Positions 16,201-64,000 of a stretch of DNA of 64,000 bases are shown one piece after another. Position 1 is the first letter of the stretch, and each line of letters starts with the position of its first letter. A program made the translations under genes and the position numbers. This DNA comes from Pilatotrama ljubarskyi (taxonomy: Eukaryota > Basidiomycota > Agaricomycetes > Polyporales > Polyporaceae): positions 1-64,000 of the forward strand of contig MU277728.1 in NCBI GenBank assembly GCA_022385805.1. The letters are read 5' to 3'. The notes under the pieces are model-generated. The model had not been told where the DNA came from and made no database searches. It saw only the letters and a program-made list of their open reading frames with translations.

Positions 16201-16468
16201 AAAGATCTGGTCAGCAAGGCGAGGCAACTCTTTCACCGGGTCCTGGGTTTGAGAGTGGAATTCGGATCTGTACTTCCAGACGAGCAAAGAGATGGACGTA
16301 CCACTTCGCCATAATGGATGATGTTCTTCCTCAGCTTCTGCTCTGGCGTTTCATACGTTTCACGTCGCTCGTGTTCATCTGCTCACATGGTCTCTGAACG
16401 TCGTCCACGCTCCACCATGATATGGGCGACTTACCTCGAGGATGCCGTCTGCGTCCGTGGTAGCTCAT
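13233..16468 (-). CDS. CBC1: Nuclear cap-binding protein large subunit CBP80
   Basis: Thirteen exons, in transcript order: 16468-16435, 16378-16302, 16242-16151, 16101-15921, 15869-15714, 15663-15508, 15452-15207, 15156-14941, 14887-14646, 14592-14405, 14351-13731, 13679-13429, 13364-13233. They total 863 codons plus stop with all phases matching. The N-terminus MSYHGRRRHPRDEHERRETY leads into a MIF4G-type region (EQKLRKNIIHYGEVDP). Diagnostic later blocks are SLLHIGSRSFSHFLNAIERY, FDKLMQYQIVDPTDVVGW and EHAWHNRANWEDDDWESWET. The partner is CBP20; together they bind the m7G cap of nascent RNA and guide splicing, export and decay. The fifth intron was placed at a gttcgt donor because the later gtcttg site breaks the frame. 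It shares a divergent promoter with the PPR gene. Confidence 0.93.
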
Positions 16469-16946
16469 TGTTGGGTGTTGAGTCGTGCGTTGGGAGACGT
16501 CGCACGAGCGGTGGTTGTAAGACAGGCGTTCTTGAGCAGGCAATAATGCTCCGCTAATCCGCTAGACCGCGATAAAAGACTGAAATTGCTGCTGGCCAGA
16601 GCGAGCCAGAGAACTGAGAGCAGGTCAACACTGAAGCGAACGTTCCGTTGGGTTTTGTGCGGATATGTCCAGTTTTGGACATGTTTCCAAAATTCAATGA
16701 ATTGACGCGTCTCGACGAGCCTGGCCTGGCAGTGACCACCGGAGGCGCCTGGCAGTCCGTCCACAACGTCGCCAAACGCGCCTTTGCTTCAGACCCACCC
16801 TCGAGTCCTGTCAATTCTCAGGAGGCGGTTTGCTTAGAGGTCCACGCCTCGCCTCAGAGCTTAGAGGCTGCCCTGGTAAGTATATACTTGCTGAGCAGAC
16901 GCGTACATCCGAAGGTGTTGACCACCTATGGCAGTATGCGAGACAC
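16469..16946. promoter_or_regulatory. Divergent promoter, CBP80 / PPR protein
   Basis: About 478 bp separates the CBP80 start (minus) from the preferred ATG of the PPR gene (plus), so the two mRNAs must start here. A strong splice donor GTAAGT at 16876-16881 suggests a leader intron for the PPR transcript. Confidence 0.55.
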
Positions 16947-19838
16947 ATGCCATGTAACTGGTCGACGAGGGCCAGCTCTATTCTGCACGGCGTCCAAGCC
17001 AAGTTCTTCTTTGGTCGACAAGCAAGGTGCTGCCCACGCTCGCAGTTGACCGCGCACGCGGGTCGCTGCACAAGCCCGAGCGGGGGACTTTCCCCTCAGC
17101 TACGCGGCTTTCGAGGTCTTGCCACTGCTGCTGCCGCTACCGTTCAGACCGACGGAGATCCTAAAAATGCTAGCTCCGTAGCCTCTTCTATCCGTTCCAC
17201 AACTGCACGACTATCCGCTGCTCAGGTCTCCCGTGCCGCCGCGCAGGCTGTCCGTCTCTCCATCCAAGACGGGAATTACGGAGATGCCCTGTACGTGGTC
17301 AACTCCGCGTGTCACTCTGTCCTGCAGGGCCCGCTCGATAGTGGGTCCAAGCAGTCCCAGCTTCAACCCATCGACTTTGGCTGTGCTGTCTCCCCCCGAC
17401 TCGCGGCGCACGCCTTCTTACATGGCCTCATACGCGGGGGCTACACTAGGAAGGCCGCGATCTATGCCAAACTCATGATGCGCTCCGGGATCCCAATCCA
17501 TACTCGGACGCTGGAGGCCACTATCTCCTCTCTCATCTCTCCAACCTCACCATTGCCCAAACTCGGTCCATTCGCCCGTTTTCTCCCTCAGAAGCCCTCG
17601 ATCGACAACCACACAGTCCTGCAGCTGCGACGTGGACGTGTAGCGGATAGTTCCGCCCGCGCAGCCCTCGAGCTATACCAAGCCGCACGCACCTTTGGCC
17701 AGCGGCGGACGGAGCGAATGCATCGGGTACTCATTGAGACCCTCATCATGCAAGGAGAGATTCTGGTCGCATCTCTTCTCTTTGTGCTCCTTCTCAAGGA
17801 TTTTGAGGTCCGATGGAAGGCCACTGTGTCTAATGAAGACCCTGGGGGCCCGAACTACATCACTCACGAAACCTTACGTGTGCCTCTGCCTTCCCGTGCT
17901 ACTCTCGCGGATGCCCCGTTCCCCGACCCGAGGATCATGCACAAGATTCTCAAAGCCGTCAACTCGACTCGCGATCCAGGCACAGATTCTGCGGCCTCTC
18001 AGTCCTTGCAGACTTTGGCCATCTTTGCGATGCTCTTGGACACTGGTCAAATCGGTCATTCCCGCGTCTCTGGCCTCATCGCAGCAATGTACAACTGTCC
18101 GAAGACCCGAGCGCATGTATGGATTCTTCGAGACGGCAAGGTCGTCCGAGTCCCGGCATACGAGTACATCCACGGAGTGCTCAAGCGCCTCGTCGACTCC
18201 TTGTCCCAGGAGGGCGCTTCCCGCCCTGCGCCGCTCCTATCCAGGAGATCATACAATGCGCTGCTCACCTATGCGCTGCGACATCGCCTCTCCCCTAAGA
18301 TGGCTTCCACAGTGCTCCAGCACATGTGCGTCGTCCGCGATCCGCCTTTGTCGCCAGACGTGGTCACATACAACATTTTGTTGCGCTCCGCCACTTTGCT
18401 GCGCCAAGTGTCTCTCAGTCGAGAGGCACTCGCAACGCTCCGTCTCGGGCGCTTTGGTCTCCAGGCTCAAGCTGTGGCAGAGCGGCGACCACCTGTCGAG
18501 GAATCCGCACCTGTCGCCGGAAACGCAAGGCCGCAGCTCCACCCTGTCGCAAGCCATTCCGAGCACCGCGTAGGGTCACGCAACGAGGATTCTCGCGAGC
18601 AAGACGGTTCGCTGGCCCCAGAGGACGAGGATGAAATCGGTACCGCACTACGACGGCTCGAGGAGGAAAAGTTGTCCTTGCCCGACCCCGGCCTCGCACC
18701 TCATCTCAGAATCAAGCGGGATAACTACACGCTCACCAGCTCCGTAAGCCACTTGACAGCGATAGGAAAACCGGGCGTCGTTGCGGCCAAGCTGTTCCGG
18801 ATGCTCCCCGAACTCACCATCATCGACCACCCCGCAACGGGCACTCTACACCCTCTTTCGTTGCCATTCACCGATCGAGTTCAGGCCATGAAACGGGCGG
18901 TGGCTCGCGGACCATACATCTATGCGACTTTCATCAATGCGCTCGCGAAGGCGGGCGAGGTCGGACTTGCCGAACGCGTGTTCATCCTCGCACAGCACGC
19001 CGAGCGCGCCAGCCACATACCTGATTTCGCCCCGGGCATCTCGCCATGGCGTCTGACGGTGCACGCATACACGGCGATGATGCAGGCCTACGCTCGTATC
19101 GCCCATTTGAAGGTCCCTCCCTCCAAGCTGCGTGACCGGTACGCTGGCACGATGCTCTTGCAGCAGCGTATAGATTGGAAGCCCAGGACGCGGCTCCGCC
19201 ATGTCAGCCACGGTTACGCTCAGTTCGTGCATATGCTCAACGAGTATGAGAAGAGGCGCCGCACTTTGACCAAGCCTCAGCGGAGTAGGCGAAACGCACT
19301 CCTGCTCTATCGCTCCATGATGTCTGGGGGCCGCTCCCTATTCGACAGCCTCATCCACAACTCCCGGGTCAAGCCCCTTCGCACACCGTATCAGGGATCG
19401 CCCCAGTTGGGATACCAGGTGAAGCCGGACGCACGGTTCTTCAATTCCGCCCTGAAGCTTTTCGGACCTCGCCCGGAGCGAATGAGCAGACGCCGCCGCC
19501 AACCCGCCTATTGGCATCGACGGCTACGCGTGTCGATGAGGGAGTATGAGCGGACAGGAAGGCCGTCGCCGCAGTGGTCGCCGATGCTGGACAAGATTTT
19601 GAGGGCGATGGTCGCGACAGGCTTCGACGTCCCGCTCGCATACCGTCATCTGCTGGTTGGGAAATGGGACTCTGCGTCGGTTACCGCGGTGTACCCGCGG
19701 AGACGCTTGTTACGGCGGCCGTATGCGTACCCCCCGACGCCGAAGAGGGCCCTCAAGGTGCAAGCGGTACCCGTCTTCAAGACGAGAGGTTTACCAGTTT
19801 GGCGCACTACGCTCAAGCGCAAGAGGAGAGGCATGTGA
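16947..19838 (+). CDS. PPR-like mitochondrial protein
   Basis: A single exon of 963 codons from the first in-frame ATG at 16947. The open frame extends upstream to about 16830 without an ATG. The N-terminus is rich in Arg, Ser and Ala and has no acidic residues for over 50 positions, as in a mitochondrial targeting sequence. PPR-like helical hairpins are visible as SPDVVTYNILLRSATLLRQV, YIYATFINALAKAGEVGLAE and LTVHAYTAMMQAYARI, among degenerate ones. The C-terminal third is very basic. Such fungal proteins bind mitochondrial transcripts and act in their stability or translation. The target RNA is unknown. It is intronless and its 3' end faces mitochondrial IF3 with a gap of 195 bp. Confidence 0.78.
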   Translation: MPCNWSTRASSILHGVQAKFFFGRQARCCPRSQLTAHAGRCTSPSGGLSPQLRGFRGLATAAAATVQTDGDPKNASSVASSIRSTTARLSAAQVSRAAAQAVRLSIQDGNYGDALYVVNSACHSVLQGPLDSGSKQSQLQPIDFGCAVSPRLAAHAFLHGLIRGGYTRKAAIYAKLMMRSGIPIHTRTLEATISSLISPTSPLPKLGPFARFLPQKPSIDNHTVLQLRRGRVADSSARAALELYQAARTFGQRRTERMHRVLIETLIMQGEILVASLLFVLLLKDFEVRWKATVSNEDPGGPNYITHETLRVPLPSRATLADAPFPDPRIMHKILKAVNSTRDPGTDSAASQSLQTLAIFAMLLDTGQIGHSRVSGLIAAMYNCPKTRAHVWILRDGKVVRVPAYEYIHGVLKRLVDSLSQEGASRPAPLLSRRSYNALLTYALRHRLSPKMASTVLQHMCVVRDPPLSPDVVTYNILLRSATLLRQVSLSREALATLRLGRFGLQAQAVAERRPPVEESAPVAGNARPQLHPVASHSEHRVGSRNEDSREQDGSLAPEDEDEIGTALRRLEEEKLSLPDPGLAPHLRIKRDNYTLTSSVSHLTAIGKPGVVAAKLFRMLPELTIIDHPATGTLHPLSLPFTDRVQAMKRAVARGPYIYATFINALAKAGEVGLAERVFILAQHAERASHIPDFAPGISPWRLTVHAYTAMMQAYARIAHLKVPPSKLRDRYAGTMLLQQRIDWKPRTRLRHVSHGYAQFVHMLNEYEKRRRTLTKPQRSRRNALLLYRSMMSGGRSLFDSLIHNSRVKPLRTPYQGSPQLGYQVKPDARFFNSALKLFGPRPERMSRRRRQPAYWHRRLRVSMREYERTGRPSPQWSPMLDKILRAMVATGFDVPLAYRHLLVGKWDSASVTAVYPRRRLLRRPYAYPPTPKRALKVQAVPVFKTRGLPVWRTTLKRKRRGM

Positions 19839-39656: not shown

Positions 39657-40691
39657 CGTGATGTGCGGCTTGAGCAGGACGCTCTGGTGGACGGAGGGAA
39701 AGAAGTGGTTGAGCGTGGCTAGTCAGCGCGGGGAACGCTGGCGACGCGACAAGACGCGCCTGAACCTTATTTATGGTCGCGTCTTGCAAAGCGCCGGCCT
39801 TTTTTCGCGGAACCGCCCGTGTCACGCGTTGGATCGCGTCAATTGACTCGAGTCGGACAACCTCGAAAAGTCAAGAGTTGCTTGATTCGGTCGTCCATAC
39901 CGTACACTCCTCATGAACGACGTAACGGATTTACTGCACTTCATACGCACGGCCATATCAGATGTGAAGTCCTTGCCTGAGTGCTAGCATGCGGTATGCT
40001 TTCTTCGAGGCAAAGGTGACCTGCGCCAGCGAGACATCGAAGACCGAGGACAGTGGAGTAATCGATGATTGTACGTGCTGCCCTGACAATGTGTGAATTC
40101 GTCATGAAGTCCTCCGTTGATGGTCAGGCAGTATTGCTGGTGGCTCAATTCGTTCAAAGCTCTCGAATCCACTCGACGTGGGACCTCAGTCTGGAAACGG
40201 ACGCGTAGGTTCATTCAGAGCGAACTCGATCTTAAGCCAGAATCCTGTCCCGGGTGCCTGAGCACTCCCGTCGCAACTGCGAACGTCATTCTACCGCAGC
40301 GACCGCGCCCAAGGACATGCATCCAACACTGGCAGCGGAAGCAATGTGGACCACCCAGCTGCGGTACCACCACGACGCCACATGTGTGAGCTAGAAAGGA
40401 CACTCAGAAGTCGAAAAAAATTCCACCTGCAGGAGAAGCCTACCGCAGCTGCACGGCGCAGACGCGAGGACAGCGTAGTAAGCCAATGTCGGCGCTCCCT
40501 ACGTGCCAATGCACTGGTAAGAAAGCTCAGAAGAAAGCTCGGGCATTCGCATATGAACGCAGACGTTCGTAGCCGATACCCTCACCCATTCCCAACCGCT
40601 CCTACCCATATTCAGTGTAAGCTCCTCGCCTGATCCCGCCTACAGCTGAGACTGACACGCGCTACTTCAGCCAGGATTGCCCGCTGCCGGT
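39657..40691. promoter_or_regulatory. Divergent promoter region, RAD16 / methyltransferase-GT8
   Basis: About 1.0 kb between divergent genes. Near the right end, a ctacttcag acceptor-like site at about 40663-40671 could end a leader intron of the methyltransferase-GT8 mRNA. No gene seen. Confidence 0.45.
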
Positions 40692-42311
40692 ATGTCGGAC
40701 TCTCACCCTGAGCAACAGCCGTACGTCTTCACGGAGACCCAAGACTGGTTCTCCTTCAACAGGGAGACGTGGCGCCGTCTCTTCGAGCACGTCAAGACTC
40801 CCTCCCCCCGTGTCCTCGAGATCGGCTCCTGGGAAGGCCGCTCCGCCGTCTTCCTCCTCACAGAGCTCTGCAAAGATGGCGGCTCGATCGTCTGTATCGA
40901 CCACTTCGACCTCATGCAGACCGCCGCCGGGCGCGAGCGACACCGCAAGCTCACGCACAACCTCGCGCTCACCGGGAAGAGCTTCCGCATCCTCGACCAG
41001 TTCAGCGCTCCCGCACTGATGACGCTCCTCACCGAGGAGATGTCTGCCGCGCAGCCGGGGTTTGATTGGGTGTACGTGGATGGCTCGCACGAGGCGGACG
41101 ACACGTTCCTTGACGGAGAACTCGCGTGGCGCCTTGCGCGGAAGGGTGCGGTACTTGTCTTTGACGACTATCATTGGGACAAGGAGCCCGAGGACAGCAT
41201 CCACCACCCGAAGCGCGGGATAGACGCATTCCTCGCGCTGCATAAGGGCGAATATACTCTGTTTTCGTCGGAGACGCAGTACCAGGTCGTCATCCAGAAG
41301 ACTGTCGATATGCGCATTGGCTTCCTGGTCGCGGAGAAGGTGGACTCGAAGGAAAGCCTCGACGCTGCTCTCGGATATGGCGTGAATGTGGCGCTCACTA
41401 TCGATGCGGAGTATGCCATCGCCGCAGCTGTTGCCATCCGCAGCGCCGTTCAGCACACGAGCGGCCGTATCAGTTTTTACGTTCTTGGTCCAGACCTGAC
41501 AGAGGACGTGAAGGAGAGATTGCGACGCTCCCTTTCTGACCGCGAAGACGCGACCCTAGTGTTCGTAGATATGCCCTCAGGCCCTTCCTCTGGAGGCTTC
41601 CCAAGCGGCCTCACCTGGGCAAAGATCGCCATGATCCCTCGGCTTCCTGTCGAGAGGGTATTGTACCTGGACGCCGACGTCCTCGTGCGAGGCGACTTGC
41701 AGGACCTTTGGCACACGGACCTGAAGGGAAAACCTCTCGCTGCTGCAGTCGATGTTGGGTTCCCGATGGGTCACGAGGGCGTGAAGCGCGCTCCGTACTT
41801 CAACGCGGGCGTTCTCCTCATGGACCTCACCACCATCCGAAAAGACTTCCGCAGGCTCAGAGCCCTCGCCGCTGGGAAGAAGGACACGAAGATGCTGGAC
41901 CAAGACGCCCTGAACGCCCACTTCGCGAACAGCTGGCTCCCACTCGGCCTCAGGTGGAACGCACAGGGTCTGGGCACATATGCTACGTACCACACGCCCG
42001 AACGTGCCGCGCTGGACATGGAGGACATGAAGGATCCGAAAATCGTCCATTTCACCGGCGCATTACACCCCAGCATGGCGGAGGTGATCAACCCGTTCGT
42101 GCAACCGTACAGCGGGAAGCCGTGGGGGTATGCGGGCGCCCCTGGTCATCCATTCGCGCGTGAGTGGTGGGAGGTTTCCGAGCAGACGGCGTGGAAGGGC
42201 TGGCGTTCGTCTGAGGAGTTCCGCGAGTTGTGCGTGAGGAAGGTGGAGGAAGCAATCCGGATCGGGGTGGACGACTTCAGGGGGAGGATTGCTGACTTGT
42301 ACAACGCCTGA
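40692..42311 (+). CDS. Class I methyltransferase-GT8 glycosyltransferase fusion
   Basis: One intronless frame of 539 residues from ATG 40692 (MSDSHPEQQPYVF). Residues ~1-210 match class I SAM-dependent methyltransferases of the Methyltransf_24/CmcI-like type: SAM-binding VLEIGSWEGRSAVFL, then SIVCIDHFD, and the block DWVYVDGSHEADDTFLDGEL followed by GAVLVFDDYHW. From ~222 on it is a GT8 (GT-A fold) glycosyltransferase: the metal/nucleotide DxD is LDADV (D327, D329), with RAPYFNAGVLLMDL, LDQDALNAHF and KIVHFTGALHP, ending with GKPW. No signal peptide or membrane segment is seen, so it should be cytosolic. A glycogenin- or galactinol-like transferase that also methylates its product is one reading. 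The acceptor is unknown. The lack of introns contrasts with its neighbours. Confidence 0.87.
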   Translation: MSDSHPEQQPYVFTETQDWFSFNRETWRRLFEHVKTPSPRVLEIGSWEGRSAVFLLTELCKDGGSIVCIDHFDLMQTAAGRERHRKLTHNLALTGKSFRILDQFSAPALMTLLTEEMSAAQPGFDWVYVDGSHEADDTFLDGELAWRLARKGAVLVFDDYHWDKEPEDSIHHPKRGIDAFLALHKGEYTLFSSETQYQVVIQKTVDMRIGFLVAEKVDSKESLDAALGYGVNVALTIDAEYAIAAAVAIRSAVQHTSGRISFYVLGPDLTEDVKERLRRSLSDREDATLVFVDMPSGPSSGGFPSGLTWAKIAMIPRLPVERVLYLDADVLVRGDLQDLWHTDLKGKPLAAAVDVGFPMGHEGVKRAPYFNAGVLLMDLTTIRKDFRRLRALAAGKKDTKMLDQDALNAHFANSWLPLGLRWNAQGLGTYATYHTPERAALDMEDMKDPKIVHFTGALHPSMAEVINPFVQPYSGKPWGYAGAPGHPFAREWWEVSEQTAWKGWRSSEEFRELCVRKVEEAIRIGVDDFRGRIADLYNA

Positions 42312-51154: not shown

Positions 51155-54100
51155 TCATGACCCCTGTGTGCGCCCGCGTTTTCGAGGTGCCCGTTTCGCC
51201 GGCGGCTGGTCCGCGTTCGCCGTCGTTGGCGAATCATCTCCGCTGCGTGTTGGAGGCGCCTTCCGCTTTAGCGTCGCATTCGCCATCGACGGCGTCGTCG
51301 GCCCGCCGGGCGTCGGTGCGGCGGCTGGGGTCGACGCGGAAGCCGGTGTCGAACCCGACGCTTGTGGCGTACCCTTCGCCTGTTTGGCGTCGACGCCATC
51401 GGGCTGAGAAGCGTTTTGCGACGGCTCGCCGCCTGAAGAGCCCTGGGAGGACCCTGCTGTATTGCCTGAGCCGTGCATGAACATGTTCGGCGGGGTGCCA
51501 TTGACCCCATTCAGACCATGTCCGTCGAAGGCAGATGAGCCCTCCACGTGAGGCGTGTAGGTAGGCGGAGCCGGTAGCAAGTAACCGCGAGGGATTCCGC
51601 GCGCGAGCCTTAGCTTATCGGCGAACCTCGCTAGAGCATCTGCGCATCCCGGTGAGTAGGGGATGGAATTAGGAACGGTGCTCGTGAGTACACACCAACT
51701 GGCCCCAACTTGGTATCTTGCGAGAATTGGATCAGCTCTGACATCTGTGCAACGCTCTCCGCAAGCTGTACGTCCGCATTGATGAGTATCCACAGGATCG
51801 GTGGAGTCGACAAGGATGCTCACCTCCAGACATCGCATCGTCGCCTGCGGGATTCCGAAGGCGTTGATTGGCTCCGTAGGGACGATCGCATGCTCGATGA
51901 TATACTTCGCCTCGTCGAAGCGATTTGGATCCTCGTTCTGAGGAGCTGGCAACCCCGGGGATGGAGGTAGACCCCTTGGCGATTCGGCGAGCCGCTCGCC
52001 GACGATCGCGTCCAGCGCGACGTACTTGTCGTGCCAGAACGCGTCGAACTGTAGCCGGTCGAGCTTCAGCGCATAAGACGTCACCGCCCCCATGGGAGTC
52101 GGCTGGGGAGGGATGGGATGTGGCTGTACGATGATGTCTGCCGTGAGTGGTCCCCGGAGGATGATGCTATAGCCGTTCTGGTACCGGAACGTCCAGGTAG
52201 CTTGGGCGCACTCGACGAGCGCGTGCGAGGGATTCACGAGCCGCTCCCGCGCCCCGTCGACGCAGATCGTCATGGACTTTACCCCTGACTGGCTAGTGAC
52301 GAGAAAGAATCGCGGGAGAATGGGATAGCCTATTTCTGTTCCTCGTCGTGAGCAATGGCGGCTAAAGAAGGAAGTCGCTTCCTTACCGAAAGGCTTCGCC
52401 TCGACCTGCTGATTGTCCTTCCAGAGTGTGAGCTTCATCGTAGCCTTCTCCGTGAAGAACTGTCCGACGATCGATTCCCAGTATGACTGCTTCAGTCTCT
52501 GCCAAGTCCAGTAGGTCAGTTGCAGGAGCGACGAGCCTGGAACAGCGCTGTGCACTCACATCCTTGTGTTCTACACCGAGGCTGCCGCTCAGCTGCAATA
52601 TTCGACATGTTGCTTGTCCTAATCCGACAGGGTATATGCTGCTTGAGCGCACAGAAACGTTAATCAGCTGCACGTGGGATGTGGCGAACGGTGACTACTC
52701 ACGTTCGTGATATCGTCGGCGCCGCTGGTGCTTGAGCCGGCGCGGGAGCTGGAGCAGGCGGAGCAGCCTGTGCTGCCGCGCTGCTCTCCGGAGCGGGAGG
52801 TTGTGGGCCGGATGGCCCTGGAGGTGCGGGCGCAGGATGCGCTGCGCGTGCCGAAGCAGCAGCGTTCGCTGAAGGCGGCCGCGGAGCAATTTGCGGGGGT
52901 TGCGTGGAAGGAGGGGCGCTCGCAGGTTGCTGCACTTGCTGGTGCGTCGGGCCCTGCGGGCTCTGCCCCGGTCCTGGAGGTATCCGGCCTGGAGGCATCA
53001 TGCCTCCGGTATTCGTCGGCAGGGGAGTGTGAGAGACGCGCGGCGTCCGTGACGGAGCGGGGGGTATCGGGGACTGTCGGTGGATCGCTTGCGGTTGCGA
53101 CTGCGGTCGTGGCAGGATGCCGGTGGGTGGTGGCATCTGGCCAACGAGGCGGTCGGCTTGGCGGGGTGAGTGTTGCGGGGGAAGGGAGGGTTGGGACTGG
53201 GGCATCGGAAAGGGATTGCGAGGACTGTGCTGAGATGGCGGCCGTGGAGGCGCGGTGATTGGTGGTTGGCCCATGCCGTATGTACCGGTAGGGAACTTGT
53301 CTCCGCCGGCATTCATCTCGAGAGTTTGCGCTGGCGTGGCTATGGTCCCAGGCGCGCTCATAGCAGGATTCGCACGTTGCGGCATGTCACCGCCAGGATT
53401 AGGAGGCGTCGGTGACGCACCGAAGTTGACGCTGAACTGGGAGTTGCTCATGGGCGGACGAGGCACGCCGTGTACCATAGGTGGTTGGATCGGCGGGTTC
53501 TGGAAGTTCATGAACATCGAGTTGTCCGCCCCCATTTGCGCACGGTTCGTGCCCGCCTGCGGGAGCAACTGGTTGCCGCCCATAGCCCCAGGCATACCAG
53601 GCTGCTGCTGTCCCGAGCCCCCGACGTGGGGTGAAGTACCGAGCTGCGACTGCTGATGTTGGTGCTGGTGCTGGAGCGCCATCGTATTCGGAAACCCGTT
53701 GTGCGCCATCTGCTGCTGCATCCCGTGTTGAGCCATTCCCGCTGGCATGAGCGGCCCCTGCCCCGACGCCGTCCGCGCATGTGGCGGCATCGCGCCCGCT
53801 CCTTGCAGGTGTCCTGCCCTGTTCATCGACATCCCCATCTCCGGCGATATCGCGCCTCCGCCTGCCTGCTGTTGCGCCTGCTGTCGCTGAAGATGCATCT
53901 GCATCTGCTGCTGCTGCTGAGGTGTCATATGGGTGCGCATTCCGCCCATGTTAGGAGGTCCGTTGAGTCCCATGGTCCCGCCCATCATCCCCGGCTGCAT
54001 GCCAGGCATATGCGCCCCCGATGTGTTCATCGGCTGGGAGGCGACGCGTCGGATCGAAGGCTGGCCCATGATGCCGCCGCCGGGGAACGCAGACATGTTC

Positions 54101-54441
54101 TGGAGCTGACCGGGTCCGAGACCAGCCATGTGCGAGGGACCTGCGCCAGCACCAGTGTTAAGACTTCCGGGGGCGGGGTGCTGAGCCATGAACATCTGGC
54201 GGCGAGGGGCTTGAGCTGGCTGCATGCCGAGCGGATAACTGGGGTTGGAGGCGCCGGGCTGGCCACCGATGATACCAAGTCCGGGGTTAGTGCCCTGGTT
54301 GTTTGGGAAGGGGCCCATATTGTGGGCAGGCGACTGTTGAGCCTGCTGCGGCTGAGGGCCGGGGAAGAAGGGTTGGTTCATGAGGTTTTGGTGCATGGTG
54401 GGGACGCCTTGCCGAATCATGTCGGGATGCTGTACGTTCAT
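51155..54441 (-). CDS. LIM-domain-binding protein (LDB1/PtaB-like transcriptional co-regulator)
   Basis: Six exons (54441-52703, 52638-52560, 52498-52387, 52335-51824, 51765-51696, 51639-51155) give 998 residues. The first ~575 residues are Met/Gln/Pro/Gly-rich and disordered. The conserved LIM-bind/LDB region covers about 580-790: IYPVGLGQATCRILQLSGSL, then SYWESIVGQFFTEKATMKLT, GYPILPRFFLVTSQSGVKSM and LRGPLTADIIVQPHPIP. It ends with AESVAQMSELIQFSQDTKLG. A basic C-terminal tail (KRAPRKRGR) is a likely nuclear signal. LDB1 in animals dimerises and links LIM or GATA factors; fungal members such as PtaB, Mfg1 and Adn2 work with Flo8/Som1-type factors in morphogenesis and adhesion. That role is inferred. 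Confidence 0.88.
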
Positions 54442-56654
54442 CGCGGACGACGGAGAAGGGAAGGATGGAGGTGTTCACCGACGCGAGGGCGAGGACGCGT
54501 TGTCGCATGCAGGAGACGGAAAAGGCAAGCTGCGAGCGGGTGATCGAAGCGAGGGGCACACCGGCGATAAGGCGCAGTTGCTTGCTGGCGCAGGGCGGTG
54601 GAGGACGGGGCCGACGCGGGGGACGTCGAGGGGAGCGGGGAGGAGGAGGCCGACGAGGACGCCGGGGACGTCGAGGACGAGGGGAAAGTTGGGTCGCGTT
54701 GTGGCAGCTCTGGCACGGACGCACTCACACGCTTGAGCGACGGCACTGCTTCTTCCACGCCACGAGTCCAGCGCCCGCTCCCGATTTCCCCGCACTCGCC
54801 CTATTGTCTCATTTCCAGCTCGCAACAACACAAGCTCGTCTGCGCTCTTTCTCGCTCATCGCTCTTGTTTCCGTACACAACACACCCGCCAGCGTCGCTC
54901 GGCGCTGCGAGCGGGAGGAATGCACAAATGTCTCCGCGTCGAGGATGCATCATCTCACAGCAAGCGCCGGATCCCGCAAATATGTACGCGCCCCGCGTCA
55001 GACGGCGCATCCGTTCTCGCCCCCGGCACCGAGTACCCTTGGGTCGCAGCAGCGCACCATGACAGAGCCCGTCGCACAGGTCGGACCAGCGGTGGGCCAA
55101 CCGTCGACGGCGAGCGCACGCACGACGAGCATGACTATCGCGCGAAACCGGCCTCGTTCGATGCACGCGGCCGGGCCTGGGTGGCGCAACGTTGCATTGT
55201 CCCCGTCCTCTATCCCCTCACGCTCATTCCCCGTTTCTCATTACGCACTCGCCCACTCGTTTGTACGCATACACACGCACGCCCCAGCCCTGCGCTGGCG
55301 ATTGACAAGGCAACTGCAACGACGTAACGCGGGCGGAGGAGAGACGACCGATAAGACGCTTCTCCCAGACTCGTCACCCTCGCGGCTCGAGCCAGCTCGG
55401 ATACGGATCTCCCACCGGTGCGCGCAGTACTGCTTCGTCCGCCAGTCCGACAGAACTGTTGCCGTACGCGGCTTGCCTTCGCAGCTGCGAAGTCCGCGGT
55501 CCTCAGCGCGCCTGAGTACTCCCCGAAGCCGGGTCGGTCGAAGCATGAGACCAAGGGGCGTCTTGCTCCGTGCATTCAGTTCTTGAGTTCGCCTATAGAA
55601 TGCGATCTGGCCTCCGTCAGATGGTGACAGTATGTGAACCGTCATCGGAGACCTGGTGCCCTGAATGCTGGGATGGGCTTGGGGAGCGTTGAAGTGTTGC
55701 GACTCGTGCGTACAAGTTTGTTTGTCTACCATCCTGGAAGACTATGTATGCCACCGAACGGAATGCCTGCTTAGATTTCGACGCCGGGCATCGGAGTGAT
55801 CGCACGCAGCTGGAGATGCAGCCCGACTGCGCACAGGCTAGAAGATGCGATCGAAACCTACTATCCTTCAAGTGCTCAGCCTACGATCAAATTCGCCTAA
55901 CCGCATAGTGCATAGCAATGTAAAGCGAGTCGTAGCTCCATCTTCTTCGCAGAGACAGGTCGGACTCGAGAATGCACAAGAGCTTGACAGTTTCTACACG
56001 TCTCAACTGAAGGTACCAGTACGTATCCAGGGCATTTAACACTGACAATGGAGGAGTCCGCGGGAACCTAAGTATTTTATTCGGATTGTCATATCTGCTT
56101 GAAGGGAGGGCTCGAGTACTGACTGACCCACGTTCATGTTGCTCGCAGGTCGGAGCCACCCACACGACTGCTGCGCCCAGTCAGTCTTGCTCATTCTCGC
56201 TATACCGAGGTCAGCTGCATGGACTGACAGGGGTCCTCGGAATTAGGGACCAGGGTTCGTGTGCCTCCACCGTCTCCATGAACGACGAATCGCTCATCCC
56301 ATGAGTGTCGTCGACATCACTGCGACATCATCAAGGTGTTGCTGCGGCAGAGGCTCATTGGGGCCCGCGAAGTCGTTCGGGTTCGAAAACGGTCGGGGTG
56401 TGGTACTAGTGCCTATCGTGGCTTCCACCTGTCCCGAGGACGGCGCAGATTCTCGATGTCGATGCAGTCGCTGCGGTAGGATGACATCTGGACTTCATTT
56501 CCAGGTATACGGGCGGCTACAGGGCCATTCTGGAGGTTGACGTGCCTGTGAACGCTGGGACAGCGGTTATATGAGAGGAGAGAATCAGAACCTGTGGACT
56601 CACCCCCCCTTCCACACCTATCACATCCCTCCAAAAATTCGCCGGTCAGAAACT
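54442..56654. promoter_or_regulatory. 2.2-kb divergent intergenic region
   Basis: Separates the LIM-binding gene (minus) from the epimerase-glycosyltransferase gene (plus). The left 400 bp is strongly strand-asymmetric in purines. A 373-codon open frame at 54465-55586 (plus) is low-complexity and antisense to the likely leader of the LIM-binding gene, and I do not call it a gene. The rest shows nothing recognisable. Confidence 0.4.
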
Positions 56655-59600
56655 ATGTTGCAAAAGTCCGAACTTGTGCTCGTTACCGGAGGGCATGGCT
56701 TCATTGTAAGTGCCACTTGCCAGTCTTCTGATACGCCCTTGTCATGATATCGTTCAGGGAGGCCATGTGGCTAGAAAGCTCTGTGCCCTGGGCTATCGGG
56801 TGAGGGTGACTGACATCGTCCCGAAGCCGCCCCGCGACGCGCAGGTAGTTGGAGAAATAGTCATCGGCAACTTATGCGACCCCGCTTTCGCTGCCCGAGT
56901 CGTTCAAGGCGTGGGTTACGTACTCCATTTCGCCGCCACCATGGGCGGGATGGGGACGATCCACGCCGCAAACGACTTCGTTATATACCGGGAGAACCAT
57001 GGCATGACCACCAACCTCCTGAACGCCTGCGTCGCAGCGGGCGTGCGGGGATTCTTCTATGCGTCCTCCGCCTGTGTCTACCCGGAGTCGTTGCAGACTC
57101 CGGGCACGGACGTCTCCCTGGCGGAGTCTGACGTATGGAAGAACCCTCCTCCGCACCCACAGGGCCTCTACGGCCTCGAGAAGCTCGCAAGCGAGCTCGT
57201 CCTGAAGCAGTTCGATTCCCGGCTCGAGGTCAGGATCGCCCGCTTCCACAACGTATTCGGACCGCTGGGGTCCTGGTACGGTGGGCGCGAGAAGGTCCCC
57301 GCGGCGTTCCTCCGCAAGGCGTTCGCCGCGAAGATCGCGAATGACGCACCCGTGAAATTCGAGGTATGGGGGGACGGGCAGCAGAGGCGGAGCTTCTGCT
57401 TCATTGACGACGCCGTGGAAGCGGTGCTCCGCCTTGTGCAGTCAGACTGCCGTGAGCCTGTCAATGTTGGCTCGGACCAGGCCGTCTCCATCCAGGAGCT
57501 CGCGCATATGGCCCTTGCTGCAGCCTCCGTGGATCGGGCGAGCGTAGTGTTCGAGTACATGACCGGTAGACCTGTTGGGGTCGGGTCACGGAACTCGGAC
57601 AATACGTTCGTTCGCGAGCAGCTGGGATGGACTCCGAAGATTTCTCTGGAGGAGGGAATGCGCGTTACAGGCGAGTGGATCCAATTCCAGATCGAAGAGA
57701 CCGTCTCTCCGATGAGCGACGCAGAGAGAAGGGAGTACCTCCGCGTCCTGCAAACCAGCGACGTTGTGGACCTTCAGGCGGATGCCATCACCTTCGCTAT
57801 ACTCCTACCCATCACATCCCGGGGATCCAACTCGCCTGGAGACTGTCTGATCAATCTGCGGAACTTCGCCCGCTCTCTCTTTGCGACTACGTCTGACGAC
57901 ATTGCACGGCTCGGCGAGCGGTACGCGGTGAGGATCTATGTCGCGGTCGACGACGACGACGCTTTCCTCTGGGAGGATGACGGTAGAAGCGTTGTCATCC
58001 CCATCCTGCGCGATGAGGGCTTCCATGACGTCGTGACCTTGCGGTGCGATCGTCCGCGCGGCCACGTCTGCGCCCTCTGGCGCGACTGTGCGCGTAGGGC
58101 GTACAAGGACCGCTGCGACTACTACATTCTCATGGGAGACGACGTGCTTCTACTGGATTCGGGCTGGATGCGCGCCGTACATCAGACATTTGCGGGCCTC
58201 TCGTCGACCGAGCACGTCCCTCATGGGATAGGATGCGTCGCCTTCACCGACACATCTTTTCCCGGCATGCCCACGTTCCCTGTCGTTCACCGCACCCATA
58301 TGGACATCTTCGGCGGCGAGGTCATCCCGGACTGCTTCACCAATCAGGACGGAGACCCCTTCCTCTTCCAGCTGTATCGTCGGTGGGGATGTTCGCGCAT
58401 GATCTCTCCGCGCATCCACAACGAGCTTGGCGGCAGCGGCGCTGCGCGGTACGAGAAGGTCCATGCAGCAGGCTGGACATTTCGACCGCTAGACGACGCT
58501 ACCAGCACTGTCGAAGCCTGGCTCTGTCGTAACGCGCCCGAAGTAGAGCGAAAGCTCACGCTCGACGTCGTCATTCCGTGCTACAGGGTCAACATGCAGT
58601 ACCTCGACGCCTTCCTAGCTCTTCGCCCCTCCTCGACGTGCACCGTGATGCTCATCATCATCATCGACGACCCCCGCTCTCCCAACATTAACGAGCTGAT
58701 GCAAAAGTACGGTCACCGACCGGACGTCCGCATCAGAGTCAACCCGCGGAACTTGGGAGCGTCCGCCTCGCGCAACAGAGGGCTGCAGGAGTCGGCCGCG
58801 GAGTGGGTTTACTTTTTGGACGACGACGTCACCCCGGGCGAAAATCTCCTAGTTGAGGCCGAGAAGGCGATTCGAGCGCATCCGAGGGCTGCAGGTTTCG
58901 TCGGGAACGCCTACTTCCCCTCTGCCGACTCTGTGTTCACCGCCGCGGTGCATCTCGCGGGGGTGACGTACTTCTGGGACATCGCGGACAAAATAGAGAA
59001 GGACGTACCTTGGGGCGTGACCGCCAACCTGATTGCGCGGCGCAACGTCCTTGACGGCGTCCAATTCGACCTTCGGTTTCCCAAGACAGGAGGAGGGGAG
59101 GACATAGATTACTGCCGCAAGAAGAGGGCCTACTCCGTGGAGCACGGCGGTGAGGCGTTCTGGACAGCCCCGGGCGTGAAGGTCACCCATCCTTGGTGGA
59201 ACGGCGGCAAGAGATCGTACTGGCGGTTCTACATGTGGTCGAAGGGAGATGGCGGGCTCATCAGGCTCTACCCCGAGCACACCTACCGCGACTCGTTCCC
59301 GAACGCGGCCGAGTGCGTCCTGTGTGGCGGGCAGGTCATCTTCGCAGGCTGCTGCATCGCGCTCTACGACGTCGGACCGGGTCTTCGGTGCATACGCTTG
59401 GGCGTCGCGCTGGTCGCGTCGGTGGCCACTGCGAACGTCGCGCATGATCTCTACCGCCATCTCGTGCAGCATCCGGAGCGGGCGCGAGGGATGAAGACCA
59501 CGGTGACAGGGTTGCGGTGGGTCTGTGCGATCGTGGAGGGCGCGATTCTCCGGGTCTTCTCGGAATGGGGTAGGGTGGTTGGGATCTTGGAACGCGGTGA

Positions 59601-59745
59601 GTGCGATATGTTGCTCAAGAGGTTCGACTGGTTCTGTGGCAGGTGGGGAGAAGGGCCAAAGCGGGAGGAGATGGAGAACAACCGCGCCAGGCTAGCGTTG
59701 ACGCTGGGCATATTCGCGCTATTCGTCGTGTTCTTCCGCCTGTAG
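56655..59745 (+). CDS. GDP-mannose 3,5-epimerase-like/GT-A/GT2 fusion enzyme
   Basis: Exons 56655-56705 and 56758-59745 give 1012 residues. Residues 1-345 are an extended SDR epimerase: NAD motif TGGHGFIGGHVAR (completed by the intron), FAATMGGMGTIHAAND, catalytic-type Cys123 in SSACVYPES, Tyr155/Lys159 in YGLEK, and Lys196 in GSWYGGREKVPAAF. This block and GRPVGVGSRNSDNTFVREQL are hallmarks of plant GDP-mannose 3,5-epimerase, which yields GDP-L-galactose and GDP-L-gulose. Residues ~360-605 look like a GT-A domain (ILMGDDVLLLDSGWMRAV; CFTNQDGDPFLFQLYRRWG). Residues ~618-850 are a GT2 domain: LDVVIPCYRVN, NLGASASRNRGLQ, DDD at 705-707, GGGEDIDYC. Hydrophobic segments (~870-920 and the last 20 residues) may anchor it in a membrane. 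The acceptor is unknown. Confidence 0.87.
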
Positions 59746-60192: not shown

Positions 60193-63100
60193 ATGGCTGA
60201 GCATGGCGATGGAAACATCAAGGTCGTCGTCCGGTGCCGGCCCCTCAACTCACGCGGTTCGTGTTTTTGGCCAGGCTGCGCGTCCCCGCGTTTCTTGAAC
60301 TGACCGTATCTGTCTGCTGTTGTCCTAATATCGTCTGTGCGCGTACGCTGTGTGCGATAATGGCGATGTGCATGAACAGAGATCGCGCGCGGCGCGAAAT
60401 GTCTCGTGCGGATGGAGGGGAACCAGACGATCCTAGAGCCCCCGGAGCCGGGCTCGGCGGGTGCACAGGCGGCGTCGGGACGCGCAGCGGAACGCAAACC
60501 GATGACTTTCACGTTCGACAAGAGTTACTGGTCCGCAGGCCCCCGAGACGACCCCAAGTACTGTTCCCAGCAGACGCTGTACGACGACCTGGGGAAGGAG
60601 CTGCTGGACCATAGTTTTTCGGGTTTCAACGCGTGTATCTTGGCTTGTGAGTGGGCTGTGTGGACGTTCTGTGACATATTGTACTGAAAATGTACGTAGA
60701 TGGGCAGACAGGTGCGTTCGGAAGGAGCCATTTCTCGGGGTTGATCTGATGCGTAAACCTCACAGGTTCTGGGAAGTCTTATAGGTATGTCTCTCCAAGC
60801 ACCTTCCGACGCGCTGATAATGGACTCATCTCCCACATAGTATGATGGGCTGTAAGCATCTCGTCCTTTCTGATTACCGCCACCCCGAAATGACATCTCG
60901 CCCCAGACGGCGCCGACAAGGGTATCATTCCCCTCACATGTTCCGAGCTCTTCGCGCGCGTCGAGCAGAAGAAAGCGCAGGACCCGCACGTCAGCTTCAC
61001 CGTGGAGGTTTCCTATATCGAAATCTACAACGAGAAGGTCCGCGACCTGCTCAATCCGAAGAACTCGGGCAACCTGAGGGTCCGTGAGCATCCGAGCCTG
61101 GGGCCGTACGTGGAGGATCTGTCGAAGCTGGTGGTGAACAGCTACGACGAGATGATGACGCTCATGGACGAAGGTAACAAGGCACGGACGGTCGCTGCGA
61201 CGAACATGAACGAGACGTACGTCCTCCCGTTGGTATGGCTTTGCTGCCAAATGGCTCACGCATGTGATTAGGTCGTCGCGTTCGCATGCTGTGTTCACCC
61301 TTCTCCTTTCCATGAAGCGGCATGATGTCGATACCAACCTGGACACGGAGAAGGTGTCGCGCATCAACCTCGTCGATCTTGCCGGGTCCGAGCGTGCCAA
61401 CTCGACCGGTGCCACCGGCCAGCGCTTGAAGGAGGGTGCCAACATCAACAAGTCGCTCACGACGCTGGGCAAGGTTATCGCCGCGCTCGCTCAAGCAAGT
61501 CAGGCGGAAGGCAAGAAGGGAAAGAAGGGAAAAGCCGAAGAGTTCATTCCCTACCGTGACTCCGTTCGTGACCGTCTTTTTGCGTCAATGACTTCGAGCT
61601 GATATCTCACTCTCGCGGTAGGTCTTGACATGGCTCCTGAAAGACAGTCTGGGAGGAAACTCCAAGACGGCGATGATTGCAGCTATCTCTCCTGCCGACG
61701 TCCAGTACGAGGAAACCCTCAGTACCCTGCGGTACGCTGATCAGGCCAAGAAGATCAAGAACAAGGCCGTGGTCAACGAGGATCCCAACGCGAAGCTCGT
61801 GCGCGAGCTCAAGGAGGAGCTTGAAATGCTCCGTGCGCGCGTCGCGGGCGCGAGCAACGAGGCGGTGTTCGACCCGTCTATCCCGGCCGCACAGCAGAAG
61901 GTCACGTACCAAGCAAAGGACGGGACGATCAAGACGGTCACGAAGGCGGAGCTGCAAGAGCAGCTAGAGACGAGCGAGAAGCTCATGCAGAGTCTGAACG
62001 AGACGTGGGAGCAGAAGATGCAGCGCACCCAGGAAATCCAGCAGGAGCGCGAGAAGGCGCTCGAGGAACTCGGTATTACGGTCGAAAAGAACAACGTGGG
62101 CGTGCATACACCCAAGAAGATGCCCCACTTGGTCAACTTGGTGCGTCCTCCGATGGTGCTCGTCTTGCTTCAAGCTCATTCTGACCTGCGATCTGTGCAT
62201 AGAACGAAGGTCTGTGCTCAAAGGAATGTCGCTCGTCTAGGCGGAGCTCATCTGAAGCTCGCAGATCCTCTCATGAGCGAGTGTCTCATCTACCAGCTCA
62301 AACCTGGCCGTACGGATGTCGGCCGCCTAGACAGCGACAAGCCCGCTACCATCAAGCTCAGCGGAGAGAGTATCAATGAGGAACACTGTTACTTCGAGAA
62401 TAACGATGGCAAAGTCACTCTGCATGCCATGCCCGATGCTGTGACTGTACGTCCCTTCTAATTACACTCAACGACTTTCGACTCAAGCCCATGCTACAGT
62501 TCTTGAACGGCCGTCAAATTACCCCCGGTCAGGTATGCCCCGCGAACATGGATCTCGGAGCTTCCCCGCAGACCTAATCACATCTGTGCGTTGCAGGCAT
62601 ACAAGCTGCGATCCGGCTTCCGTATTATTTTGGGTGAGTGCCTTCTTTTCTCCGTCAGGTCGTACAGGTGAGTCGAACGTCACTCCAGGTGAGCACCACG
62701 TCTTCCGCTTCAACAATCCGGAGGAAGTGCGGAAGCTGCGTGATCGTGCCCGGGCGAAGTCCAACATGAGCATCAGCGTCACGGCGGCCGATCTCGCGGC
62801 TGGTGAACTGGCAGAGGCGACACGGCCGAGCTCACCGACTGAGTCGAGCGTCGAGGTCGGCGACGTCGACTGGACGTTCGCCAAACGTGAGGCTGCTTTG
62901 GCGCGGCTTGGCTTGGATCCTACGCTGGACAACCTTCCTGACGAGGACCTGAACAAGCTCTTCGAGAAGATCACCAAGGTCAAGACTATGCGGGACCACA
63001 ACGCAAAGCGCCCGGAAAGCAGCCTAAGCCATGCGGACGACATTTGGAGCGAGTCCGGCCGACCACTCTCGAGCGATGCTCTGACTGACGACACGAGCGT

Positions 63101-64000
63101 GGACGCGATGACGAGCCACGACAGTCCCGAGCTTGGCGACTCTCTGAAGGATGTACAGCACCAGCTCGAGTCTCAGCGCGCTGAGTTCGAGACGCGTCTT
63201 CAGGCTATCGCGGAGTCGTCCGAGGCCGAGGACTTGAAGGCGGAGAAGGAGCAGATGGAACATCAACTTAAGATGGTGCAGATGCACATGAAGCGCTTAT
63301 ATGATGCAAGAGCGCGCGGCGAGGATTTAGAGGATGTTCCATTCGAGCCTGTCATCTATACTGGCAAGCAGCTCCGCCTAATCCGCAAGGTTCTGGACAA
63401 GTGGCGCGCTCATCGATCCTTCTCTATGGCCGAGGTTGTCCTGTCCAATGCGGTATTAATTAAGGAGGCCAATGTCATTAGGTACGTGCTCTTCAACCTT
63501 GGACGCATGTGCGGCACTGACAGTGCGGCCTGTAGTAAGGAGCTCGGGAAGGACGTGCTGTACAACTTCACCGTCGCGGCCGGCGGTACGTTGGCTGCGC
63601 CAGCGTCCGCTATTGATTCCATTGCTGGCCTGGATCAGTTCGGCGACGTTGCAGATCCTGTTCTCGCATCCGCAACCCAGCCCTCCGTGGCCGTCAAGGT
63701 ACTGGACAGACGGCACAAAGCCATATACGTCTGGTCCCTCGATCGTCTACAGCAGCAACTCCAGCGGATGCGCAACCTCACCGCCTTCATCGACCGTCCA
63801 TCTTACTCTCAACACTTCTCCTCGGAGGAGCCATTCTACGACAATCCTCCCCCAGATTACTCCTTCATCGGCAACGCTCTCATCTCTCTGGCGCCTCTTT
63901 CCAGGAGACTTTCTTCCTCGTCGACTGTGCCTATCTTCTGCAGATATACTGCTGAAGCGATCGGCTCATGTCGCGTCGAGATCAAGATCGCCAACGTCGT
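60193..64000 (+). CDS. Kinesin-3 (Unc104/KIF1-like) motor, partial
   Basis: Fourteen exons are visible: 60193-60256, 60380-60646, 60700-60711, 60766-60784, 60841-60851, 60907-61216, 61272-61563, 61622-62140, 62203-62209, 62265-62446, 62500-62532, 62597-62633, 62689-63481, 63536-64000 (cut). About 1003 residues are present of a family usually near 1600. The motor (1-~375) has [21 protein letters not shown]-loop [19 protein letters not shown] (switch I) and [20 protein letters not shown] (switch II), with a class-specific Lys-rich loop KGKKGKAEE (loop 12). A neck coiled coil follows, then an FHA domain (~505-590: [34 protein letters not shown]) and the start of the KIF1B-like stalk. The PH domain expected at the C-terminus would lie beyond the window. 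It carries vesicles and endosomes to microtubule plus ends. Confidence 0.93.

What the first reader, a model, noticed from the sequence alone, without database searches (positions are those of the whole stretch)
56655..59745. GDP-mannose 3,5-epimerase-like domain fused to two glycosyltransferase domains
Seen: one open frame, after a 52-bp intron, joins a full epimerase domain to a GT-A-like and a GT2 domain and possible membrane segments. Known: GDP-mannose 3,5-epimerase belongs mainly to plants and algae, in ascorbate and L-galactose synthesis, and its active-site Cys, Tyr, Lys and GGREK Lys are all kept here. Inference: a basidiomycete protein that makes a GDP-L-hexose and hands it to its own transferase, perhaps for a cell-wall or secreted glycan. 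I know of no described fungal enzyme with this order.
Basis: partly seen in the sequence, partly recalled or inferred. Interest (0 to 1): 0.88.

Follow-up and report, generated by a model that had tools for sequence, protein, structure and literature searches.

The report
Mushroom epimerase fused to two glycosyltransferases
Mushroom-forming fungi carry one large, undescribed enzyme that looks able to convert GDP-mannose into a rare mirror-type sugar and to attach that sugar to something with its own two transferase domains, which would point to an overlooked fungal glycan.

Summary
One gene (56655-59745, 52-bp intron) encodes 1012 aa: a GDP-mannose 3,5-epimerase (GME)-like domain, a middle GT-A-fold domain (MID), a GT2 domain and a partly hydrophobic C-terminus. 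All 119 other listed homologues keep this order; 106 of 119 cover at least 80% of each domain. The named ones are Agaricomycetes (class largely recalled). A fused fragment also occurs in the arbuscular mycorrhizal fungus Racocetra, there with a decayed GME part. The GME domain is 47% identical to Arabidopsis GME and keeps its catalytic Cys, Tyr-x3-Lys and Lys. MID matched no Pfam family and no PDB sequence, yet folds confidently as GT-A. The one virus-collection contig found with a MID gene, a phage, also encodes a GME. Best reading: GME makes GDP-L-galactose or GDP-L-gulose in the cytosol and a fused transferase uses it. Product, donor, acceptor and activity are inferred. A 491-taxon survey of fungal nucleotide-sugar enzymes shows no GME in its main text.

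The parts
56655..56705 (+). exon 1 (residues 1-17), start codon and first half of the Rossmann nucleotide-binding motif
   Evidence: N-terminus matches homologues annotated elsewhere
56706..56757 (+). 52-bp spliceosomal intron, GTAAGT...TTCAG
   Evidence: removal joins TGGHGFI to GGHVARKL as in homologues
56758..59745 (+). exon 2 (residues 18-1012 and stop)
56655..57711 (+). GDP-mannose 3,5-epimerase-like domain (residues 1-335, intron included in span)
   Evidence: Pfam PF01370 136.6 bits; PDB GME E 9e-77; tree
57073..57075 (+). GME active-site Cys123 (Arabidopsis Cys145 by recall)
   Evidence: C in 119 of 119 rows with a letter there; aligned to YASSAC of the PDB enzyme
57169..57183 (+). SDR Tyr155-x3-Lys159
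   Evidence: 119 of 119 rows with a letter there; in the alignments shown, PDB entries 2c5a and 2c54 differ from 2c59 at these two positions
57292..57294 (+). GGREK Lys196 (Arabidopsis Lys217 by recall)
   Evidence: 120 of 120 rows
57784..58542 (+). middle GT-A-fold domain (MID, residues 360-612), no Pfam family
58135..58143 (+). MID GDD (477-479), DxD-like metal/nucleotide motif
   Evidence: G 120/120, D 117/120 (3 Glu), D 120/120
58342..58359 (+). MID NQDGDP (546-551), candidate catalytic motif
   Evidence: N, Q, G, D, P 120/120; D548 118/120
58543..59301 (+). GT2 domain (residues 613-865)
   Evidence: PF00535 52 bits, cut-off 23.3, best stretch 621-744
58819..58827 (+). GT2 DDD motif (705-707)
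   Evidence: 120/120
59089..59103 (+). GT2 GGGED motif (795-799)
   Evidence: G795, G797, E798, D799 120/120; 796 not counted
59302..59742 (+). C-terminal helical region (866-1012)
   Evidence: AlphaFold2 secondary structure
59308..59364 (+). hydrophobic helix 868-886, possible membrane segment
   Evidence: hydrophobic stretch in this region (860-925) in 92 of 97 near-full-length proteins
59686..59742 (+). hydrophobic C-terminal tail 994-1012, possible tail anchor
   Evidence: seen in 34 of 97

Best explanation
A trifunctional, cytosol-facing, probably membrane-associated enzyme of mushroom-forming fungi. The N-terminal domain epimerises GDP-D-mannose at C3 and C5 (or C5 alone) to GDP-L-galactose (or GDP-L-gulose). 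One of the two fused transferases, more likely MID because MID is the one found with GME on a phage contig, moves the L-hexose to an acceptor. The GT2 domain adds the neighbouring sugar. Fusion keeps a rare and reversible sugar nucleotide local. Shown by computation: the gene, the three domains, conserved catalytic motifs, wide conservation of the order. Inferred: chemistry, which transferase takes which donor, acceptor, location.
Against: No activity, expression or glycan data. The phage link is one contig. Of 38 GME-bearing bacterial genomes none has a clear MID and one has a weak 31.7-bit match, so MID is not a usual GME partner. The WrtF match is tied with UDP-sugar enzymes, and Foldseek ranks a UDP-glucose pyrophosphorylase first. 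The one Racocetra fused copy has lost the GGREK Lys and the WGDG-RSF region, so its GME looks decayed while its MID is intact. P0263/P0264 suggest a MID-GT2 pair in an unnamed source, where no GME was seen. Membrane segments are only hydropathy calls. The transferases could use common donors.
Confidence: 0.58

Rival explanations
1. The epimerase is a true GME, but the two transferases use ordinary donors (UDP-sugars, GDP-mannose). The fusion co-locates or co-regulates, or the GME supplies GDP-L-hexose to another enzyme.
For: MID's top structural rows include UDP-sugar transferases with Z within 1 of WrtF. GT2 sequence matches are generic bacterial GT2s, best E 2.3e-5. The GME-bearing bacterial genomes searched lack a clear MID (38 of 38, one weak match). 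MID stands alone or with GT2 in some sources.
Against: All 119 listed homologues keep the order. MID and GME co-occur on a phage contig.
Confidence: 0.22
2. The domain keeps the GME fold and residues but its main product is not GDP-L-galactose: GDP-L-gulose alone, or it acts on another nucleotide sugar. The GDP-L-gulose half overlaps with the best explanation, so the odds do not add to one.
For: The fungal clade is deep, at 47% identity to the plant enzyme and separate from plant, algal and bacterial GMEs in the tree. GDP-L-gulose is a known GME product (recalled).
Against: All catalytic residues tested are kept, and GME outscores every other SDR in the PDB.
Confidence: 0.25
3. It serves an ascorbate-like pathway, as GME does in plants.
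For: GME is a step of the plant ascorbate route (established).
Against: Fusion to two transferases makes a glycan the natural sink (inference). Basidiomycetes make erythroascorbate-type compounds by other routes (recalled). The next plant enzyme was not tested: the family number tried was not in the library.
Confidence: 0.04
4. Gene-model or assembly artefact: neighbouring genes read as one.
Against: One stop-free exon spans all three domains. The order is kept in all 119 listed homologues and, in part, in a Racocetra fragment.
Confidence: 0.02

Closest known systems
GDP-mannose 3,5-epimerase of Arabidopsis (PDB 2c59; organism recalled) and PDB 8sg0
   Same: 47% identity to 2c59 over the stretch aligned, same Cys, Tyr-x3-Lys and Lys, same MGGMG, GGREK and RNSDN regions
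   Different: The solved chains are 379 and 409 residues long; here the domain is the N-terminal third of a 1012-aa protein, in its own clade
Bacterial and phage GMEs
   Same: Best 80 of each at 39-46% and 35-46% identity
   Different: None shares an ORF with a MID; downstream genes are mixed carbohydrate enzymes; MID near GME only on L164, with a weak match in L158
WrtF fucosyltransferase (PDB 9omm and related entries), GT-A fold
   Different: 8% identity; Z tied with ppGalNAc-T2 and others, so no membership follows
Uncharacterised giant-virus proteins (Chrysochromulina ericina virus A0A0N9QZS9, Cafeteria roenbergensis virus E3T529)
   Same: Best structural matches of MID in the viral library, TM 0.69 and 0.71, 22% and 18% identity
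   Different: Separate proteins of unknown function; kinship by structure only
Bifunctional cytosolic transferase PgtA of Dictyostelium (recalled, no call)
   Same: Two transferase domains in one cytosolic protein
   Different: No epimerase; sequences were not compared

Membership tests
GDP-mannose 3,5-epimerase | Extended-SDR Rossmann domain with nucleotide motif | tested here: met
   PF01370 136.6 bits, TGGHGFIGGHV after splicing; the exon-1 part is missing from 45 of 120 rows, so it was counted only in the rest
GDP-mannose 3,5-epimerase | Catalytic Cys and Lys (acid/base pair; roles recalled) | tested here: met
   Cys123 in 119 of 119 rows with a letter, Lys196 in 120 of 120; aligned to the PDB enzyme. 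Racocetra P0244 lacks the Lys
GDP-mannose 3,5-epimerase | Tyr-x3-Lys of SDR | tested here: met
   Tyr155 and Lys159 in 119 of 119 rows with a letter
GDP-mannose 3,5-epimerase | Closer to GMEs than to GDP-fucose synthase and other SDRs | tested here: met
   254-262 against 75 bits in the PDB search. Tree: on the GME side of a split (SH-aLRT 92) from five lower-scoring SDR ORFs that were not identified
GDP-mannose 3,5-epimerase | Converts GDP-D-mannose to GDP-L-galactose or GDP-L-gulose | not testable with these tools
   needs enzyme assay
GT2 (Pfam PF00535), C-terminal domain | Profile match over curated cut-off, DxD and ED motifs | tested here: met
   52 bits, cut-off 23.3; DDD and GGGED kept
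GT2 (Pfam PF00535), middle domain | Profile match | tested here: not met
   0 Pfam families in the window member; in 9 members only one chance match at E 0.22; profile comparison of MID with the protein's own GT2 aligned 16 columns, probability 0.3%
GT-A fold transferase, middle domain | GT-A fold | tested here: met
WrtF-type GDP-L-fucose transferases, middle domain | Same family | tested here: inconclusive
   top Z but tied, 8% identity

The most novel reading that the evidence does not exclude
Agaricomycetes make an unrecognised GDP-L-hexose (L-galactose or L-gulose) and channel it inside one polypeptide to a founding member of a new glycosyltransferase family, building an L-hexose-containing glycan not on the known map of fungal sugars; the same fusion once served, and may still serve, arbuscular mycorrhizal fungi.
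Probability: 0.45. Interest if true: 0.85.

Novelty: new variant of a known kind. Interest (0 to 1): 0.66.

Why it matters
A kingdom-wide survey of fungal nucleotide-sugar enzymes (491 taxa, PMC8092308, passages read) has no GME class and no L-galactose in its main text. If this enzyme works as its parts suggest, a large group of mushrooms makes a sugar nucleotide and a glycan that are missing from that map, and galactose in their glycans should be checked for its L form. The middle domain would found a transferase family with a phage member and, by structure, possible giant-virus kin. The gene is single-copy in this genome at the sensitivity used, so deletion and sugar analysis are direct tests.

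Tried and rejected
Artefact of gene prediction: rejected. GDP-fucose enzyme: rejected mainly because GMEs outscore fucose synthase 262 to 75 bits. Candidates for the fucose route exist on contig C99: GDP-mannose 4,6-dehydratase exons of 381, 108 and 30 bits and fucose-synthase exons of 63 and 34 bits. All are exon pieces below the curated cut-offs; the window gene itself scores 88 bits with the fucose-synthase profile, more than either C99 exon, and a 36-bit match on C116 is unresolved. MID as a tandem copy of the GT2 domain: profile comparison gave no support. MID in the prokaryote genome collection by conserved peptides: 32 stretches matched a pattern, none a relative. In IMG/VR with fungal rows: 84 stretches, none; with broader rows A5: 51 stretches, 1 relative, the phage contig; P0258 as query found the same contig again; P0254 as query found none. 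P0258 against annotated phages: no match. MID in flanks of 160 GME loci: none with the fungal profile; with the wider profile, beyond the window (L168), L164 and its duplicate L172, only weak matches, best E 6e-5 in L158. Genes just downstream of GMEs show no single partner: of 128 non-redundant loci 113 had a usable downstream ORF; PF00535 matched 8 of 49 viral ones and a WecG-type transferase 12 of 64 bacterial ones. Origin of the fungal GME: open. The quick tree puts fungi as sister to all other GMEs, but that search was not exhaustive: holding all eukaryotes as one clade gave a log-likelihood 38 higher (p-AU 0.871), and holding the 21 Agaricomycete rows apart from Racocetra gave 48 higher (p-AU 0.952). 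L-galactose in mushrooms: literature searches listed nothing direct; the Ganoderma paper PMC6269047 (passages read) resolves D and L sugars for an orchid polysaccharide, and the passages seen do not report absolute configuration for Ganoderma galactose.

Full report
The gene. The frame 56710-59745 is open for 1011 codons. The start codon lies at 56655; a 52-bp intron, 56706-56757, begins GTAAGT and ends TTCAG. Removing it joins TGGHGFI to GGHVARKL, a complete Rossmann motif that is found at the N-terminus of homologues. The product is 1012 aa. The window lies in an unnamed 33.1-Mb genome of 173 contigs. The closest listed protein, apart from a 913-aa entry for the window itself, is from Trametes cingulata (Polyporales), 86% identical over 100% of the query. 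In its own genome the gene is single-copy at the sensitivity used: one full match and one 27-bit match elsewhere.

Conservation. A whole-length search scored the 7988 candidates sharing most words and gave 442 proteins at E up to 0.001, with 120 listed. Of the 119 others, all keep the order GME-MID-GT2, and 106 cover at least 80% of each domain; the 13 exceptions are short in the GME (11) or in MID (2). The domain profiles were built from these same rows, so this counts architecture and is not an independent detection. Many rows are unnamed metagenome proteins. The named ones come from many Agaricomycete genera, among them Trametes, Ganoderma, Laetiporus, Suillus, Lactarius, Amanita, Mycena, Ramaria and Tulasnella; of these I looked up Trametes and Tulasnella, the rest is recalled. 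Since only 120 rows are shown, absence elsewhere is not established.

Racocetra. A profile search with MID alone, which by its length limits cannot list full-length fusions, gave 27 proteins. One from Racocetra persica (Glomeromycota), a 466-aa fragment, carries the second half of a GME (residues 2-146), a whole MID (171-422) and the start of a GT2 (429-466). Its GME part reads GGGEN where others read GGREK and has also lost the WGDG-RSF region, so that copy probably does not epimerise. Another Racocetra fragment, P0137, has a GME of full length with GGKEK; whether it is fused is not known, as it ends in the linker region by eye.

Epimerase domain. In the PDB, GMEs score 254-262 bits and the next enzyme, GDP-L-fucose synthase, 75 bits. 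Identity to 2c59 (Arabidopsis by recall) is 47% over the stretch aligned. Cys123, Tyr155 and Lys159 are kept in 119 of 119 rows with a letter there, Lys196 in 120 of 120. In the alignments shown, 2c5a and 2c54 differ from 2c59 at the matching Tyr and Lys; that these are designed mutants, and the numbers 145, 174, 178 and 217, are recalled. In a quick tree of 88 hand-chosen rows the 21 fungal fusions, Racocetra P0137 and three metagenome rows form one clade (SH-aLRT 96), on the GME side of a split (92) from five unidentified SDR ORFs used as outgroup. The quick search was not exhaustive: a tree with all labelled eukaryotic GMEs together has a log-likelihood 38 higher (p-AU 0.871), and one with the Agaricomycete rows apart from Racocetra 48 higher (p-AU 0.952). 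So the deep position is open.

GT2 domain and C-terminus. PF00535 scores 52 bits. DDD and GGGED are kept in 120 of 120 rows at the positions counted. The nearest solved sequences are bacterial-type GT2s, best E 2.3e-5. The C-terminus is helical, with a hydrophobic stretch in the 860-925 region in 92 of 97 proteins and a tail stretch in 34 of 97; the same cut-off also fires in the GT2 core in 32 of 97, so it is a weak test. No signal peptide fits before the Rossmann strand, so the active sites should face the cytosol, where GDP-mannose is made (inference and established knowledge).

Independent link. One relative of MID was found in the viral collection (2.9 million contigs) by the patterns used. 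That 21-kb contig has terminase, portal and major head genes and encodes, besides the MID gene (L164:10040-10777, 37% identity), a GME (L164 about 15868-16854, 40% identity). Chance co-occurrence is unlikely given how few viral contigs carry GME, but sugar cassettes cluster, and this is one case. In the other direction the link fails: of 38 GME-bearing bacterial genomes searched, none has a clear MID and one has a 31.7-bit match.

Pathway context. On contig C99 of the own genome, exon matches to GDP-mannose 4,6-dehydratase (68770-69963, 381, 108 and 30 bits) lie next to exon matches to GDP-fucose synthase (70653-71466, minus strand, 63 and 34 bits). None passes the curated whole-protein cut-off, as expected for exon pieces, and the window gene scores 88 bits with the fucose-synthase profile. 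I take the fused protein as a further branch from GDP-mannose, beside a likely fucose route. The survey PMC8092308 (passages read) covers 491 fungal taxa and names ten major interconverting clades without GME; 'GME' and 'L-galactose' do not occur in its main text; its supplements were not seen. The fucose survey PMC10481521 (passages read) does not mention L-galactose. The searches listed no paper that, by title or abstract start, describes this protein; only three listed papers were opened (PMC8092308, PMC10481521, PMC6269047), some lists were capped, and subscription papers are not held. One deposited protein, from Lentinula aciculospora, already bears the name GDP-mannose-3'',5''-epimerase, so the activity has been guessed by annotation.

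Verdict. The architecture is real and widely kept, and probably old. The GME assignment is strong (I would put it at 0.85), the transferase assignments are strong by fold and motif, and the coupling of product to transferase is the open step (0.55). The novelty lies in the combination, in a sugar nucleotide not counted in fungi, and in MID.

Noticed in passing
window 40656-42308 (+): One open frame carries a Methyltransf_24 domain followed by a glycosyltransferase family 8 domain, a second enzyme fusion with a transferase about 14 kb upstream.
   Followed up: partly
window 51158-52555 (-) and 52702-54474 (-): LIM-domain-binding protein (PF01803, 120 bits) with a long Q/P/M-rich frame just upstream on the same strand, perhaps one transcription-factor gene.
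   Followed up: partly
window 61622-63998 (+): Kinesin of the KIF1 type (Kinesin, Kinesin_assoc, KIF1B profiles), the downstream neighbour.
   Followed up: partly
L164:10040-18742: A phage head-gene module holds a MID-like transferase, a GME, and two further ORFs (16863-17600, 18134-18742) that look like GT-A proteins by eye but match no PHROG; the first also has no Pfam match.
   Followed up: partly
P0256 (metagenome protein, 478 aa): A MID domain (residues 261-448) sits behind an N-terminal half that looks sulfotransferase-like by eye.
   Followed up: partly
   Followed up: partly
[quoted passage not shown]
   Followed up: partly
P0244 (Racocetra persica): The fused GME lacks the GGREK lysine (GGGEN) and the WGDG-RSF region while MID is intact, which suggests a decayed or altered epimerase in one copy.
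   Followed up: partly
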